This document shows positions 8,572-14,434 of a stretch of 42,468 bases of DNA, one piece after another; the first letter of the stretch is position 1; each line of letters starts with the position of its first letter. The notes below the pieces were generated by a model that was given only the letters and a program-made list of their open reading frames with translations, was not told where the DNA came from and ran no database searches. The translations under genes and the position numbers were made by a program. Source of the DNA: a virus; the IMG/VR virus record IMGVR_UViG_3300030104_005177, positions 1 to 42,468 of that record. One strand, written 5' to 3'.

Positions 8572-11500
8572 ATGACAAAAGAACAATTAGTATCTAGGTA
8601 TAAGCAACAATACCCTAGTCTATCAAAGTATAGTGATGATAAGCTATATGCATCATTAATACAGAAATTTCCAGAGTATAGAACTCAAATGGATGACCCT
8701 GTTAAGTATGATGCAGATAATTTATTTGACTCATTGCCTAACTTTATAAAAAAAGGTTATAACGAGTCTATACAAGGCATAGCAAGTCAGCTAATGACAG
8801 GTAATCAAAGGTTTGATTTGTCTGGATATGAGCCCGGAATACTAGAAGATATAGGTAGTGGTATAGTTAGTATGTTTGCATCTCCTGCTGATTTAGCTGT
8901 AGGTGTATTTGGAGGTGGAGTAGGTGGTGCTGTTGCCAAAAGAGTAGCAGTAAAAACAATAGCTAAAAAATTAGTTCGTAACGGAGTTAAATCTAATAGA
9001 GCTTTAGATGTAGCAAAGAGAGCATCTAGTAAGGCCTATGGTATTGGAATTGGAAAATCTACTGGTGCATTAGCTGGATACGAAGGAGTTAAAAGTGGAT
9101 TTAAACAAAGGTTAGAAACAGGCGATGTTAAGTTAGATGAAGTTGTAAAAGATACCTTATCTGGTGCAGTATTAGGAGGCGTATCTGCAGGAACAGGTGC
9201 GTACTTAACATCTAAAGGATTTAGTACAATGACTAAGGTTCTTGGGGAAACAGGAGCCTTAGGAACTACTATGCCTATAACAGAAGGAGAGATACCTACT
9301 CCTCAAGATTATATAAATGCAGGTGGAATGATTTTAGGTTTAAAAGCAGTTGGTGGAGCAGTAGGTTCTATACCTAAGTTAAAGAACCTTGTTATGGAAG
9401 GTAGGAAACCTTCATTAAAAAAAGAAAAGATAGCAGATGATTTAGCTGAAGAATTTGGTACTACTATTGGAAAGATGGATGACGTTCAAAGAAGACAATC
9501 TGAGGTCTACTTAGATAAAGATGGTGGCAAGTGGTCTGTTATTAGTGAACCGGGAGCAAAGAAAATAAAGCTTACGGACTATAAGACAGGTCAAAGAACG
9601 TTAACAGAAAATCAATTTGCAAGTACGTACAAATTGGCAGATGAGATAGATATACCTTTAAAAAATCTTAAGAAAGACAGAGTAATTAAACTTAGGTCTT
9701 TAGAATCTAATTCTAATATTAGCGATGCTATGAAGCAAACACTAAGATATTCTTCTTTAGATTTGAATACAAAGAAAGCCTTTAAAGCTGTTCAAGGAGA
9801 CTTGGATTTAAAGCTAGATTACTTAAAACCTTCTGAATTATATAGATATAGAGATGCTTTACTTAGAAGAAAATCAGTTGTAAATGCAATAGATAAATTA
9901 AAAGCAGATGGTTGGGTTACTCAAGAAGCTAAGTCTTCTATATTTAAAGAAAACTTTTTTCCTAAACCTGTTGCTAACTTACTACAAGGATTAGTTAGAA
10001 CTAAGTACAGAGGCTCTCAAAAACAACCAATAAGAAAATATTTTGCCGATGTAGGAAGGTATACTACAGATAAAGACGCTTTAACAGGAGAGTATTTAGG
10101 TAGGCTTATTAATACAGGTTTATTTAATCCATCTAAAAAAGATATAGTAAAGTTTAAAAAGTCTGGGATGTCTATGAAAGACGCAGAAAATGCCTACTAT
10201 CGAAACCTTTCAAAGGAAGTAGAACTAGGTCTTAGACCAGAGATAAATGCAGTTACTGCTTTAATAGCAAGAAGGTTTACTTCTACAGGCGGTCAAATAC
10301 CCGGATACATACAAAACTATGTTCCTCAAATGATGAACAGAGATGTTGCTGATGTTATCTTTGACGATATGTTAAATGCATTAACTAAGAAAAAAGAACT
10401 ATCTAAAATTATGAGAGACAAGTATGACGTTACTAGTACAGATAAAATACTTGTAGACATGACAGCTAATCCAGATAGGTTTATATCTAAAAACCCAGAG
10501 CTATCATCTTACCTAGACTCTTTAATAAAAAGAGCAGAACCGGGATTTAAAAATGAGACAAAAGAACTACTAAGAGCAAACTTAGAAAGTGGTTCTAACC
10601 TAGAGTATTTAAGAGCATTTAGTAGAGTTGGCAATGGTTTACAAAATGAACTCTTTAATATGTTTGGCAACCTTGAAAAGAAAAGAAGGTTTATTATACC
10701 TGAAGAATTATTAGAAAGAAATTTAAAAACATTGCTAACTAGGTACTCTACAAAAGCCGCTAATAGAACTTCTTTTGTTAGAAACTTTGGTGCAAAGTCA
10801 GAGAAGTTTCAAACTTTATTAAACAGATCAGACCAAAAAGATAAAGGTATAATGAGAGAACTTCATCATCATGTTAAGGGTGACATTGAATATCATAGCA
10901 ATTATAACTATAAGAAAAATACTAAAGACATGTGGCAACAAGTTATGGAGTATGAAACAGGTCTTAAGATAGGATTAGGATACGCCCCTGTATTAAACGT
11001 AACTCAAAGTACAATATCTACTGCACTAGAAGCAGGGTATATACCATTTTTTAGAGGTATTTTTTCTCTTACAGACAAGAAAACAAAAGAGTTAATAGAA
11101 AGGTCAGGAGTTACTAACTATTCTATGTTTAATGAAATGATAGGTGTTACTCAGTCTACTAATACTAGTGGCAAAGTAGTTGATATACTATCAAGATATA
11201 GTGGATTTAATGGTATTAATAAAATAAACCAAGTATTAGCCGCATCAACAGCTAGGGTTCTTGTAGACGATATGTTTAAGGCAGTAAAGGGTAGGGGTAT
11301 TCGTGGTAAATTTAGATTAAGTAGGCAGTTTGCTTCTAATAAACTTAGGCAACTAGATATTGACCCTAAAAAATCTAGATTAACTGATGATGATTATATA
11401 AAAGCCATGTCAAAGTTTGCTAGAAAAACACAGCTACAAAAAGATATTTTAGAAGACCCGTTAGTTTTTAATAATCCTAAGATAAAACCCTTTGTGCAGT

Positions 11501-12261
11501 TTAAAAGATTTGGCTATAGACAATTTAACTATATTAAAGACTTGTTCTACCATGATATATCTATGGGTAACATTATGCCTATACTAAGACTAGGAGTAGC
11601 AGGGGTAGCAGGTGGTACTATAGCTAATAAATCTAAAGAAATTATAAGAGCAGTTTTATCTGGAGATGGCATAGATGATTTTAACGATTTTGTTGAGTTA
11701 GTATCTGGCAATAGGTCTATAGATACAGACGCTCAACTACCTAAGGACTTTCAAGATGTAGTAGAGAATTTATCTGCTGTAGGAGCCTTTGGATTTACAG
11801 GTGATTTAATATCAGCTACAATGGAAGAGGGAAGAAGTTATGCAAACTCATTAAAGTTTTTAGCGTTTCCTCCTTTCTTATCTGATATAGATAACTTACT
11901 TACTAGGTTTATGCCTGCTGTAGAAAGAGATTTTAAAACGTATAGAGCAGATGCATTAAAAAGAATGCCGACTAGATTAGCTAGATTAAGTGGTTCTTCT
12001 TTTATAAGAGAAGCAGGTAAAAGATTTGAAACTGAAGGCATGACTATAGATAGGATAAAAAACATGAGGTCTAGAAGACTAGATAAAATTTTAACTATGC
12101 TAGAAAAAGCTAATACTCCAGAGGACTACGATAAAGCATACGAAGAATTAAATACTTGGAACACTTCTTTTTCAGAGTATCCTATACTAGCACCAGACAT
12201 AAGCTTAAAAAAGATATACAAAAGAAAAGCTAGAAGATATAAAAAGCAGGCACTTGGTTAA
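8572..12261 (+). CDS. Very large internal/ejection-type virion protein
   Basis: The product is 1229 aa, the longest gene here. The N-terminus (MTKEQLVSRYKQQYPSLSKY) resembles a small 'LVxxYKxxYPxLSxYSDxxLYxxLxxKxPEY' module that I recall at the start of giant phage virion proteins. Residues about 95-260 contain glycine/alanine-rich, possibly membrane-inserting stretches (GVFGGGVGGAVAKRV, LSGAVLGGVSAGTGAYL). The remainder is helical and basic, with a conserved-looking VLNVTQSTISTALEAGY near 805. A role comparable to T7 gp16-type channel proteins is inferred from size, composition and place, not from a visible enzyme motif. There is no lytic transglycosylase signature. No clear Shine-Dalgarno sequence precedes ATG 8572. 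Confidence 0.55.
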   Translation: MTKEQLVSRYKQQYPSLSKYSDDKLYASLIQKFPEYRTQMDDPVKYDADNLFDSLPNFIKKGYNESIQGIASQLMTGNQRFDLSGYEPGILEDIGSGIVSMFASPADLAVGVFGGGVGGAVAKRVAVKTIAKKLVRNGVKSNRALDVAKRASSKAYGIGIGKSTGALAGYEGVKSGFKQRLETGDVKLDEVVKDTLSGAVLGGVSAGTGAYLTSKGFSTMTKVLGETGALGTTMPITEGEIPTPQDYINAGGMILGLKAVGGAVGSIPKLKNLVMEGRKPSLKKEKIADDLAEEFGTTIGKMDDVQRRQSEVYLDKDGGKWSVISEPGAKKIKLTDYKTGQRTLTENQFASTYKLADEIDIPLKNLKKDRVIKLRSLESNSNISDAMKQTLRYSSLDLNTKKAFKAVQGDLDLKLDYLKPSELYRYRDALLRRKSVVNAIDKLKADGWVTQEAKSSIFKENFFPKPVANLLQGLVRTKYRGSQKQPIRKYFADVGRYTTDKDALTGEYLGRLINTGLFNPSKKDIVKFKKSGMSMKDAENAYYRNLSKEVELGLRPEINAVTALIARRFTSTGGQIPGYIQNYVPQMMNRDVADVIFDDMLNALTKKKELSKIMRDKYDVTSTDKILVDMTANPDRFISKNPELSSYLDSLIKRAEPGFKNETKELLRANLESGSNLEYLRAFSRVGNGLQNELFNMFGNLEKKRRFIIPEELLERNLKTLLTRYSTKAANRTSFVRNFGAKSEKFQTLLNRSDQKDKGIMRELHHHVKGDIEYHSNYNYKKNTKDMWQQVMEYETGLKIGLGYAPVLNVTQSTISTALEAGYIPFFRGIFSLTDKKTKELIERSGVTNYSMFNEMIGVTQSTNTSGKVVDILSRYSGFNGINKINQVLAASTARVLVDDMFKAVKGRGIRGKFRLSRQFASNKLRQLDIDPKKSRLTDDDYIKAMSKFARKTQLQKDILEDPLVFNNPKIKPFVQFKRFGYRQFNYIKDLFYHDISMGNIMPILRLGVAGVAGGTIANKSKEIIRAVLSGDGIDDFNDFVELVSGNRSIDTDAQLPKDFQDVVENLSAVGAFGFTGDLISATMEEGRSYANSLKFLAFPPFLSDIDNLLTRFMPAVERDFKTYRADALKRMPTRLARLSGSSFIREAGKRFETEGMTIDRIKNMRSRRLDKILTMLEKANTPEDYDKAYEELNTWNTSFSEYPILAPDISLKKIYKRKARRYKKQALG

Positions 12262-13106
12262 TGGCTAATACTATAAATGAATACTTTCAACCTTCATCTA
12301 CAAGCTCACATAGTAATATAGATAACTTAATATTAGAAGCTGAGCTAGATAAATTTGCACAGACAGGCTCTATACGTGAAGATAGAACTCCAAGATACAT
12401 AGGTGGAACAGACGATGTTGTAGCTAATATAGCTTTATCTCCTATAATGACTTTAAAAAGCATGGGTAATGTTGGAAGAAAGATACTAGAAAAAACTGGC
12501 TTACGCAATCCATTGTCTCACTATACTAGAGCAAGAAACATTTCCAATATATTTAAAAAAGGTAGAATAGATGGATATAAAGGAGTTTCCACTACAAGAG
12601 ACCCTTCCTTTACCAATAGAAGTCATAACACAATAGGAACGGATATTAGGCTTGTTGTAGATAGAGATGAGTTAATAAAAAAAGGCTTAAAGGTAAAACC
12701 GTATGTTGAACCCGGTGGGATGCCCGGATATTCTAAAACACTTAACGACTACAGTAGGCCTCCAATAACACTTGAAAACTATAGAAAGATACATGGGCAA
12801 TATCCAAATCAAATGAATCCTAGGTTTGAGTTTGAAGAAAGAGTAAGAAGTAATATACCTACAGAAAATATAAAACTTATAGATATACTTAAGCTACCTG
12901 AATGGTTTGGAGATACAAATTATAGGCATTCTTATAATTTAAGACAGTTTCTTAAAAATTTATCTAGCACAAAAACTCCTATTGTAAAAAGTACTTTTGC
13001 AGAAGATAGACTTAAAAACATACCTGTAAAAGATGAGGAGACTCTTGAAAATATATACAAACTAATGCAAACTCCAACATATAAATTTGATCCATTCAAA
13101 CGCTAA
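12261..13106 (+). CDS. ADP-ribosyltransferase-like protein, possibly virion-delivered
   Basis: The product is 281 aa and starts in TAATG after the 1229-aa virion gene. Residues 86-120 read SHYTRARNISNIFKKGRIDG and then STTRDPSF. Residues 128-138 hold a strand ending VVDRDELIK, and FEFEERV lies at 189-195. This order (H-Y-T, a [ST]-x-[ST]-R-D strand, a D-x-D-x-L strand, then ExEER) matches phage members of the ADP-ribosyltransferase fold. In that fold H87, the Ser110/Thr pair and Glu190 or Glu192 would bind NAD and catalyse transfer. It is the last rightward gene, so it could be packaged and injected like T4 Alt. The assignment is motif-based and unverified. Confidence 0.5.
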   Translation: MANTINEYFQPSSTSSHSNIDNLILEAELDKFAQTGSIREDRTPRYIGGTDDVVANIALSPIMTLKSMGNVGRKILEKTGLRNPLSHYTRARNISNIFKKGRIDGYKGVSTTRDPSFTNRSHNTIGTDIRLVVDRDELIKKGLKVKPYVEPGGMPGYSKTLNDYSRPPITLENYRKIHGQYPNQMNPRFEFEERVRSNIPTENIKLIDILKLPEWFGDTNYRHSYNLRQFLKNLSSTKTPIVKSTFAEDRLKNIPVKDEETLENIYKLMQTPTYKFDPFKR

Positions 13107-14434
13107 AAAGGCTTAGGTGTGCCGTTTACATCATCTCCTCTTTCTCTTGCTAATGCTACTGCCTCAGCTTCTGTATTAGTAACTAAACAACTATTACCAT
13201 GATACCCAACCTCGCAAGAGTTGGTGCTACCATATCTATTTTTAGCTACTATAAGTTCTAAGAAACAATCACTATTACCATCGTCACCATATCTAGATAC
13301 CCAAGGATAATGAGAGAATACAACTATCTCTGCATCTTGTTCCAAGTTACCAGACTCAGCTAGGTCAGATAACCTAGGCACTCTGTCTGTTCTGTGCTCC
13401 ATATTTCTATTCATCTGCGACACTAGTATTACAGACATATCTTGTGACTTAGCTAGCCATTTATAACTACGACTAACATCTCCTATCTTTAATCGTAAGT
13501 CCCTCCTATCATTTGCAGGGTGTTCTATTAAACCTATATGGTCATCTATAACTACATCTGGACTTATAGCTTTTATCTCACGAAAAGTATTCTCTATATC
13601 TCGTACATCATCGAACATAAATAACTTACCGTTATACACCTCAGATATTAAAGAAGATATATCAGATAACTCTTCCTTGTCTACATCTATATTGTTACGT
13701 AAGTTCCTGTATTGTAAGGACTTAGACTCCATTGCTATAAACTTCTTCATCATCTCTGTGTTAGGCATCTCTCTATTAAACATAGCAACCTTAAGTCCTT
13801 GGTGTACTAAGTTCCTAGCTATATTAGCTGATACAGTTGTCTTAGCATTGCCGGGTCTACCTGCTATAATAGTTATCTCACCTCTTGTCATACCTGTAAC
13901 TATTCTATCTAATGTATTGATACCTGTTTGTATCTGTGTAGTAGAATTATATATAGAGTCTTTAGTATCCTCTAATAATGAATCAATATCAAATACTTTA
14001 TTAGGCTGTAGCTTTATTATGTTACCAATAGTAGTATGTGCATCCTCTAACAAGTTAGATGTCTCAAGAGATGAGTCACCTAATCCTTTTGATATACCTG
14101 CTATTTGATTATGTAGTATTCGTCTCAAGTAATAAGAGTGCAGTCTCTTAGCATATTCTATAGAACTAGAAGGTGACACAACCCTATCCATAAAACCTGC
14201 TATTTCATAGCTAGAACTATGCCCATCTACACTATTGCCAACCTCTTCACATATGGTTACTAAATCTATCTCTTTGTTTCTTGAGTAAAGCTTATCTATT
14301 GCTGTCCAAACCTTTTGATTAAAACTAGAATAGAAGAAGTCTTTCTCTGTAATATATTGCTTAGCTGAATCTATATAAGAACTATCACTTATAAGACACC
14401 CTAAGAATGCCTGTTCTAACTCAACACTTTTCAT
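13103..14434 (-). CDS. dnaB: DnaB-type replicative helicase
   Basis: The product is 443 aa. The N-terminal DnaB domain (about 1-110) begins ELEQAFLGCLISDSS. A RecA-like motor follows: G192-R-P-G-N-A-K-T199 (Walker A), NREMPNTEMMKKF (218-232), VVIDDHIG (294-301, Walker B) and ILVSQMNRN (336-344). The usual glycine before the Walker A lysine is Ala197 here. As a ring helicase it would unwind the fork. No primase domain is attached and no phage primase or polymerase was found. It is the last gene of the leftward block, and its stop overlaps that of the convergent rightward gene by four bases. Its start overlaps the preceding gene's stop. Confidence 0.9.
   Translation of the reverse strand: MKSVELEQAFLGCLISDSSYIDSAKQYITEKDFFYSSFNQKVWTAIDKLYSRNKEIDLVTICEEVGNSVDGHSSSYEIAGFMDRVVSPSSSIEYAKRLHSYYLRRILHNQIAGISKGLGDSSLETSNLLEDAHTTIGNIIKLQPNKVFDIDSLLEDTKDSIYNSTTQIQTGINTLDRIVTGMTRGEITIIAGRPGNAKTTVSANIARNLVHQGLKVAMFNREMPNTEMMKKFIAMESKSLQYRNLRNNIDVDKEELSDISSLISEVYNGKLFMFDDVRDIENTFREIKAISPDVVIDDHIGLIEHPANDRRDLRLKIGDVSRSYKWLAKSQDMSVILVSQMNRNMEHRTDRVPRLSDLAESGNLEQDAEIVVFSHYPWVSRYGDDGNSDCFLELIVAKNRYGSTNSCEVGYHGNSCLVTNTEAEAVALARERGDDVNGTPKPF

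What the first reader, a model, noticed from the sequence alone, without database searches (positions are those of the whole stretch)
12261..13106. ADP-ribosyltransferase-like gene at the end of the virion protein operon
HYT, STTRD and FEFEERV motifs in order suggest an NAD-using transferase. Its place behind the ejection-type proteins makes it a candidate effector carried in the particle and delivered with DNA, analogous to T4 Alt.
Basis: partly seen in the sequence, partly recalled or inferred. Interest (0 to 1): 0.62.

Follow-up and report, generated by a model that had tools for sequence, protein, structure and literature searches.

The report
Phage-borne NAD enzyme with swappable tag
A bacterial virus with no close isolated relative carries, at the end of its particle-protein genes, a gene whose predicted shape matches enzymes that use NAD to mark other molecules, and in related viruses its short front tag is joined to several different enzymes, which suggests an interchangeable cargo delivered with the viral DNA.

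Summary
The ORF at 12261-13106 (281 aa) is real. It has 49 distinct relatives in other phage contigs. The motifs are conserved: H87 and T89 in 49 of 49 sequences, S110-x-T112-R113 and E190-x-E192-E193 in 50 of 50. AlphaFold2 gives a confident domain (residues 58-281). Its seven Foldseek hits under E 0.001 are all ADP-ribosyltransferase-superfamily enzymes: six DarT entries and yeast Tpt1. So the enzyme half of the reading is well supported, although no activity is shown and the protein is not in the Alt (R-S-E) clade.

Delivery is inferred. The gene starts on the stop codon of a 1229-aa virion-type protein and closes the virion operon. Going further, the first ~31 residues (TxVHNNIDNLIL.AELDK) form a tag that is joined, in related phages, to at least five different C-terminal payloads: this ART, a second ART-like class, a HEPxHG protein with an HExxH motif, and two unknown types. 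Ten of 40 resolved slots are empty. Sharp identity breakpoints separate tag, linker and enzyme.

The best reading is a short-tag, swappable virion-cargo cassette, like T4's capsid-targeting sequence with its variable internal proteins, but in P22-portal/SU10-capsid phages. Virion presence and the target are untested.

The parts
12261..13106 (+). 281-aa ORF: N-terminal tag + helical linker + ART-like domain; last gene of the virion operon
   Evidence: family of 50 members A3
12300..12353 (+). core of the N-terminal tag, residues 14-31 (TSSHSNIDNLILEAELDK); predicted disordered or isolated helix
   Evidence: shared with unrelated payloads: profile HMM i-E 1e-8 to 1e-19 in non-ART proteins; matches limited to residues 1-40 in L005, L042, L044 contigs, E 8.6e-13 to 1.8e-7; pLDDT <50 over 1-57
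12432..12509 (+). linker helices, residues 58-83 (conserved ...LSPIMTLKSMGNVGRKILEKTGLRN)
   Evidence: helices 60-67 and 70-79 in the model; conserved in A3; replaced by another linker in L008
12510..13103 (+). ART-like domain, residues 84-281
   Evidence: Foldseek/VIA matches to DarT, Tpt1, DUF952 protein CC0527
12519..12527 (+). H87-Y88-T89, motif I on strand 84-89
   Evidence: H and T 49/49; with the VIA start offset (model 82 = 7omw residue 8) H87/T89 fall on DarT H13/T15, the NAD-ribose contacts (PMC9967889)
12588..12605 (+). S110-T111-T112-R113-D114-P115, motif II at the end of strand 109-112
   Evidence: S, T112, R, P 50/50; D 49/50
12711..12818 (+). hypervariable loop, residues 151-186, just before the E-x-E motif: position of the acceptor (ARTT) loop of ARTs
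   Evidence: highest mean entropy of the domain, 2.36 bits; ARTT role from PMC9967889
12828..12842 (+). E190-F191-E192-E193-R194, motif III at strand 192-195
   Evidence: E190, E192, E193, R194 50/50
12259..12263 (+). TAATG stop/start overlap with the upstream virion-type gene (translational coupling)
   Evidence: sequence; one-base overlap also in 14 of 24 relatives measured
8572..12261 (+). 1229-aa large internal-virion-type protein upstream
   Evidence: PHROG 6958 'virion structural protein' E 5e-4; syntenic 1200-1500 aa protein in related loci
13103..14434 (-). convergent DnaB-like helicase; right border of the cargo slot, used to find the slot in other phages
   Evidence: PHROG 19 E 6e-71; 80 related loci

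Best explanation
The gene is one allele of a swappable virion-cargo cassette. A short N-terminal tag (about residues 10-31, probably a helix) is recognised during head assembly and puts the protein into the particle. A linker joins it to an ADP-ribosyltransferase-fold enzyme with H-x-T, S-x-T-R and E-x-E motifs. The protein is made by translational coupling with the large internal virion protein, travels with the DNA into the cell, and there transfers ADP-ribose from NAD+ to a host macromolecule (protein or nucleic acid), chosen by the fast-evolving loop before E190, to take over the host or blunt a defence. Shown by computation: the gene and its conservation, the predicted ART fold, the operon position, the reuse of the tag with other payloads, empty slots, mosaic breakpoints. 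Inferred: NAD use, packaging, injection, target.
For: ART fold: model with pLDDT mostly 80-96 over the domain core. All seven Foldseek PDB hits under E 0.001 are ARTs (DarT 3.7e-5 to 4.2e-4, yeast Tpt1 4.7e-4). The top 28 VIA rows are DarT, Tpt1/KptA and the DUF952 protein CC0527, Z 8.7 to 4.8. Invariant motif residues in 50 sequences. Tag: a profile of residues 10-37 finds the tag in proteins with unrelated C-termini, and a whole-family search of the L005/L042/L044 contigs matches only the first 35-40 residues at E 1e-7 to 1e-12. Payload census in close relatives: 25 ART, 2 ART + second ART-like, 2 HEPxHG, 1 other, 10 empty of 40 resolved slots. Ten empty-slot contigs have no ART elsewhere. 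Mosaic: window vs L004 92-97% nt identity over residues 1-80 then about 60%; L008 vs L006 the reverse; L161 vs L014 payload 92-97% identical in two different genomic slots with tags only 62-80%. Virion context in two lineages: behind the internal proteins, or between terminase subunits. Nearest precedent: T4 internal proteins share only a capsid-targeting sequence (PMC3012670, PMC9026906).
Against: No sequence-profile match to any known ART family above threshold and none in solved structures by sequence. The tag has never been tested as a packaging signal and could serve another purpose, for example binding the upstream protein. No virion proteomics was found for any relative. The predicted fold does not prove activity, and pocket distances could not be measured. 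Some annotation of upstream genes as virion proteins rests on weak PHROG hits (5e-4 to 1e-4).
Confidence: 0.6

Rival explanations
1. Late intracellular ART, not packaged: it is co-expressed with virion genes and acts in the producing cell, for example to block superinfection or modify a late host or phage protein; the tag binds a phage assembly partner or is a regulatory element.
For: No packaging evidence exists; T4 ModA and ModB are phage ARTs that, unlike Alt, are not injected (PMC5512222). Late position fits late action.
Against: The same tag on at least five unrelated payloads, coupled to a virion gene or placed among packaging genes, is easier to explain as an address than as part of an enzyme.
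Confidence: 0.2
2. Nucleic-acid-directed ART of DarT type (a sub-case of the best explanation on target): the injected enzyme ADP-ribosylates DNA or RNA of the host or of a competing element, rather than a protein.
For: Best Foldseek hits are DarT with NAD or DNA, E 3.7e-5. H-x-T of DarT (H13/T15) falls on H87/T89; an invariant R113 (R-D, compare DarT1 R52/D54) and invariant glutamates are available.
Against: The Pfam DarT model gives no match. No macrodomain/NADAR antidote gene next to it (neighbours are the virion protein and helicase). The residue mapping of R113 and E190 is not established.
Confidence: 0.3
3. RNA-repair enzyme of Tpt1/KptA type that removes 2'-phosphates after host tRNA cleavage.
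For: VIA Z 8.7 to yeast Tpt1 and 7.6 (2.1 A, 24% identity over 83 residues) to A. pernix Tpt1.
Against: Only the C-terminal lobe of Tpt1 aligns (chain 91-181 of 8tg4). No KptA Pfam match. Motif III is E-x-E, not the hydrophobic position of Tpt1 (H-H-h, PMC9967889). The loop before motif III is hypervariable, unlike a conserved repair enzyme.
Confidence: 0.07
4. Degenerate, structural-only ART-like domain used as a virion scaffold or plug.
For: It is an accessory gene in a virion operon; fold alone does not prove catalysis.
Against: Motif residues are the most conserved of the domain while surrounding loops vary. Replacement by a second ART-like class and an HExxH protein points to enzymes.
Confidence: 0.08

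Closest known systems
T4 internal proteins (IPI-IPIII) and Alt with the capsid-targeting sequence (CTS)
   Same: Short conserved N-terminal signal with highly diverse bodies; dispensable accessory genes; injected with DNA; one cargo (Alt) is an ART (PMC3012670, PMC9026906).
   Different: Tag sequence and length differ (about 20-30 residues, TxVHNNIDNLIL.AELDK). Different phage type (P22-like portal, SU10-like capsid). CTS cleavage by gp21 has no counterpart shown here. Alt is R-S-E, this ART is H-x-T/S-x-T-R/E-x-E.
MuF polymorphic toxins of temperate phages
   Same: A phage N-terminal region fixes delivery, C-terminal domains vary (abstracts of PMC5576092 and PMC12226406, seen).
   Different: No MuF domain; the conserved part is a short linear tag; no immunity gene seen next to it; relatives found only in viral contigs, none in bacterial genomes.
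Polyvalent proteins and N4-ART/Tox-ART-HYD2 domains of phages
   Same: Virion-gene-linked ARTs and metallopeptidases proposed to be injected (PMC5512222, PMC9503650).
   Different: Here single, short, exchangeable one-domain cargoes rather than giant multidomain proteins; active-site pattern differs from H-Y-D.
DarT (DarTG toxin)
   Same: Closest predicted fold; H-x-T on the first strand.
   Different: No DarT sequence-profile match, no partner antitoxin, virion operon setting.

Membership tests
ART superfamily (fold level) | ART fold: split beta-sheet with NAD-binding motif positions on strands 1, 2 and 5 | tested here: met
   Model; seven Foldseek hits under 1e-3, all ART; VIA top 28 rows all ART-superfamily. 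Predicted structure only.
ART superfamily (fold level) | conserved motif residues at the three positions | tested here: met
   H87-x-T89, S110-x-T112-R113, E190-x-E192 invariant in all covering sequences
ART superfamily (fold level) | NAD+ binding and ADP-ribose transfer | not testable with these tools
   needs biochemistry
Alt/VIP2 (R-S-E) clade | arginine on strand 1 | tested here: not met
   predicted strand 84-89 carries H87-x-T89, no arginine there
Tox-ART-HYD2 / polyvalent ART | H (strand 1), Y (strand 2), D (strand 5) | tested here: not met
   H present, but S/T/R and E at the other two positions (definition from PMC5512222)
Polyvalent proteins | several unrelated domains in one large polypeptide | tested here: not met
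   281 aa, one enzymatic domain; tandem fusions only in a few relatives (L007, L014)
DarT | H-x-T on strand 1 contacting the adenine-side ribose | tested here: met
   H87-x-T89, 49/49; alignment offset places them on H13/T15; contact itself not tested
DarT | catalytic Arg and Glu (R51, E160) in equivalent positions | tested here: inconclusive
   R113 and E190/E192 are invariant candidates; no residue-level structural alignment was available
DarT | match to the PF14487 profile | tested here: not met
   no match at E<=1 for the 23 members of A2 or E<=10 in the window
DarT | adjacent DarG macrodomain or NADAR antitoxin | tested here: not met
   neighbours are the 1229-aa virion-type protein and a DnaB helicase
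Tpt1/KptA | two-lobe architecture with the N-terminal RNA-binding lobe | tested here: inconclusive
   A. pernix Tpt1 aligns only over residues 91-181; no PF01885 match
T4-type CTS-tagged internal proteins | conserved N-terminal tag on otherwise unrelated proteins | tested here: met
   (works like it; the tag is not homologous to the T4 CTS as far as known)
T4-type CTS-tagged internal proteins | tag sufficient for head packaging and removed by prohead protease | not testable with these tools
   needs fusion and proteomics experiments
MuF polymorphic toxins | N-terminal MuF domain | tested here: not met
   no Pfam match of any kind in the protein at E<=1

The most novel reading that the evidence does not exclude
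Phages with P22-like portal and SU10-like capsid proteins carry a dedicated cargo slot in which a short transferable address tag loads interchangeable enzymes (two ART classes, an HExxH protein, unknown types) into the particle for injection: a second, independent invention of T4's CTS system, and a natural modular protein-delivery device.
Probability: 0.5. Interest if true: 0.78.

Novelty: new variant of a known kind. Interest (0 to 1): 0.62.

Why it matters
It would show that tag-addressed, exchangeable virion cargo is not a T4 peculiarity, would give a sequence handle (the tag) for finding unknown early effectors in uncultivated phages, and would add a DarT/Tpt1-like ART family to the candidate injected host-takeover enzymes. 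Whether a short tag loads enzymes into particles is directly testable with reporter fusions.

Tried and rejected
Pfam, PHROGs, NCBIfam and PDB-sequence searches of the protein or its family gave no usable match; a single Tox-ART-HYD1 hit at E 0.14 in one member was not used. tblastn against GenBank phages: none for this protein or the 1229-aa protein; only distant capsid (24-28%) and portal (21%) relatives. Two scans of 84,980 bacterial and archaeal genomes, with the family and with the tag, found no relative, so no host could be named. Host and habitat are therefore left open. A profile comparison with DarT was not possible because no DarT sequences could be drawn. The second ART-like class modelled poorly (pLDDT 47.6), so its ART assignment rests on nearly all listed structural matches being ARTs at weak E-values and is given as likely only.

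Full report
What was checked. The ORF 12261-13106 (+) is intact, 281 aa, and starts on the stop codon of the 1229-aa gene before it (TAATG). A search with a 23-member alignment brought further viral loci, and a 50-member alignment was built. In it H87 and T89 are identical in 49/49 covering sequences; S110, T112, R113, P115, D134, G142, P147, K159, E190, E192, E193 and R194 in 50/50; position 111 is free. Against L019 and L029, dN is about 0.2 of dS over residues 87-213, so this is a protein under selection and the motifs are not chance.

What the domain is. AlphaFold2 on that alignment gives a confident domain from residue 58 on and disorder or a lone helix before it. Foldseek against the PDB returns seven hits under E 0.001: six DarT entries (Thermus and M. 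tuberculosis; best 3.7e-5) and yeast Tpt1. VIA-align's first 28 rows are all ART superfamily: Tpt1 8.7, DarT-NAD 8.3, A. pernix Tpt1 7.6 at 2.1 A over 83 residues, and the DUF952 protein CC0527. Z values of 8 are near what unrelated models can reach, so the weight lies on the agreement of both programs and on the absence of non-ART rows at the top. The motifs sit on the strands where ARTs carry theirs. With the start offset of the DarT alignment, H87 and T89 fall on H13 and T15 of Thermus DarT, which contact the adenine-side ribose (PMC9967889). I could not measure distances or map R113 and E190/E192 onto DarT R51 and E160. The most variable part of the domain, residues 151-186 (mean entropy 2.36 bits), lies just before the E-x-E motif, where ARTs have the acceptor (ARTT) loop that selects the substrate. 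That is the pattern expected of an enzyme whose target changes.

The tag and the slot. The DnaB-like helicase next door was used to fetch 80 related loci. In 40 close relatives whose slot could be resolved, the place between the large virion protein and the helicase holds an ART protein of this family (25), an ART fused behind a second ART-like module (2), a protein with an HEPxHG (HExxH) motif (2), another protein (1), or nothing (10). The empty-slot contigs, several of 41-46 kb, have no copy elsewhere. The non-ART proteins share only the first 35-40 residues with this family (E 8.6e-13 to 1.8e-7). A profile of residues 10-37 finds the tag in further proteins with other C-termini. In all, five payload types carry it: this ART (42 distinct proteins), HEPxHG (5), a LFRG...EFDVP...GGIP class (3 alone, 2 in tandem with ART), L042, and L154/L157. 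The LFRG class models poorly, but nearly every listed structural match is an ART (pertussis, cholera, pierisin, Rhs TreX, Tpt1), so it is probably a second, R-S-E-like ART.

Mosaic structure. Window and L004 are 92-97% identical in DNA over residues 1-80 and about 60% after. L008 and L006 are the reverse. L161 and L014 carry the same LFRG payload at 92-97% DNA identity although their tags are 62-80% identical and their genes lie in different genomic slots. Tag, linker and enzyme are thus exchanged as units.

Two virion settings. In the window's lineage the cargo gene follows the large internal virion protein and is coupled to it by a one-base overlap in 14 of 24 relatives measured. In a second lineage it lies between a terminase-small-subunit-like gene and the terminase large subunit, upstream of the portal (L177 and L087 likewise). 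A tag-like HxNIDxLI motif also occurs in a neighbouring protein whose first 37 residues match a tape-measure protein, and twice in adjacent genes of L182. The regular expression for the motif hits 76 of 1193 distinct proteins against 0.45 expected after shuffling, although most of the 76 are homologous.

Mechanism proposed. The tag addresses the protein to the assembling head or its internal core; the protein leaves with the DNA and acts on a host molecule using NAD+. Shown computationally: gene, predicted fold, motif conservation, tag reuse, slot variability, mosaic exchange, virion-gene context. Inferred: NAD use, packaging, injection, target. DNA or RNA targets cannot be separated from protein targets; the DarT resemblance makes nucleic acid a serious option.

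Comparison. ARTs packaged in phage heads are a known theme: T4 Alt, MuF- and polyvalent-fused ARTs, and about 44% of phage ARTs in packaging-suggestive contexts (PMC9503650). [quoted passage not shown] What is different here is a longer tag of another sequence on single-domain, exchangeable cargoes in phages with a P22-like portal and SU10-like capsid, with no close isolate, and an ART that matches no curated family. It is not an Alt-clade, HYD2 or MuF member by the features tested. Hence: new variant of a known kind.

Noticed in passing
L007:6511-7126 (-), L014:7544-8159 (-), L160, L161, L177, L181, L182; distant forms L061, L068, L071, L073: Second payload class LFRG...[WY]xS/T...EFDVP...F.EGGIP.EYL, probably an R-S-E type ART (nearly all top structural matches are ARTs; low-confidence model).
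   Followed up: partly
L005:7332-8051 (-), L044:7332-8078 (-), L222, L224, L227: Payload with HEPxHG (HExxH) motif behind the same tag; possible zincin peptidase; no meaningful Pfam match.
   Followed up: partly
L005:8047-8421 (-): Staphylococcal-nuclease-like gene (PF00565 E 3.8e-8) inserted between the large virion protein and the tagged payload.
   Followed up: partly
L007, L008, L012, L014, L043, L117, L160, L161, L120: Recurrent [YF]QxGG motif at joints between modules and near the C-termini (GYQNGG, GFQQGGTVE, KGYQQGGVVQNLYSMI); could be a processing site or hinge.
   Followed up: no
L182:103-519 and 624-1571; L120:7037-8416; L177:6676-7785: HSAIDSLI / HSNIDNLI tag-like motif in further, different proteins next to packaging genes, twice in adjacent genes.
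   Followed up: partly
L012:4269-5648, L117:2298-3599, L160:3632-4606: Extra N-terminal module GTLPLTMxMFPE...WYLFPTMxxG...HFGVYDSYDxxMKAD inserted before the tag; unknown.
   Followed up: no
L066, L075, L077, L078, L080 (slot next to helicase): Distant relatives carry short proteins with a hydrophobic GxGEPADxxNAxxxLxxG...A.xSAL.MIPxxG segment resembling, from memory, pre-toxin regions of polymorphic toxins; no Pfam match.
   Followed up: no
window:20052-24369 (-): Two amidoligase genes (PF12224, E 1e-23 and 2e-25) and a class II glutamine amidotransferase in one block of the - strand operon: a possible modification pathway.
   Followed up: no
window:28366-29124 (+): Metallophosphoesterase (PHROG 221 E 9e-26) directly upstream of the terminase small subunit gene.
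   Followed up: no
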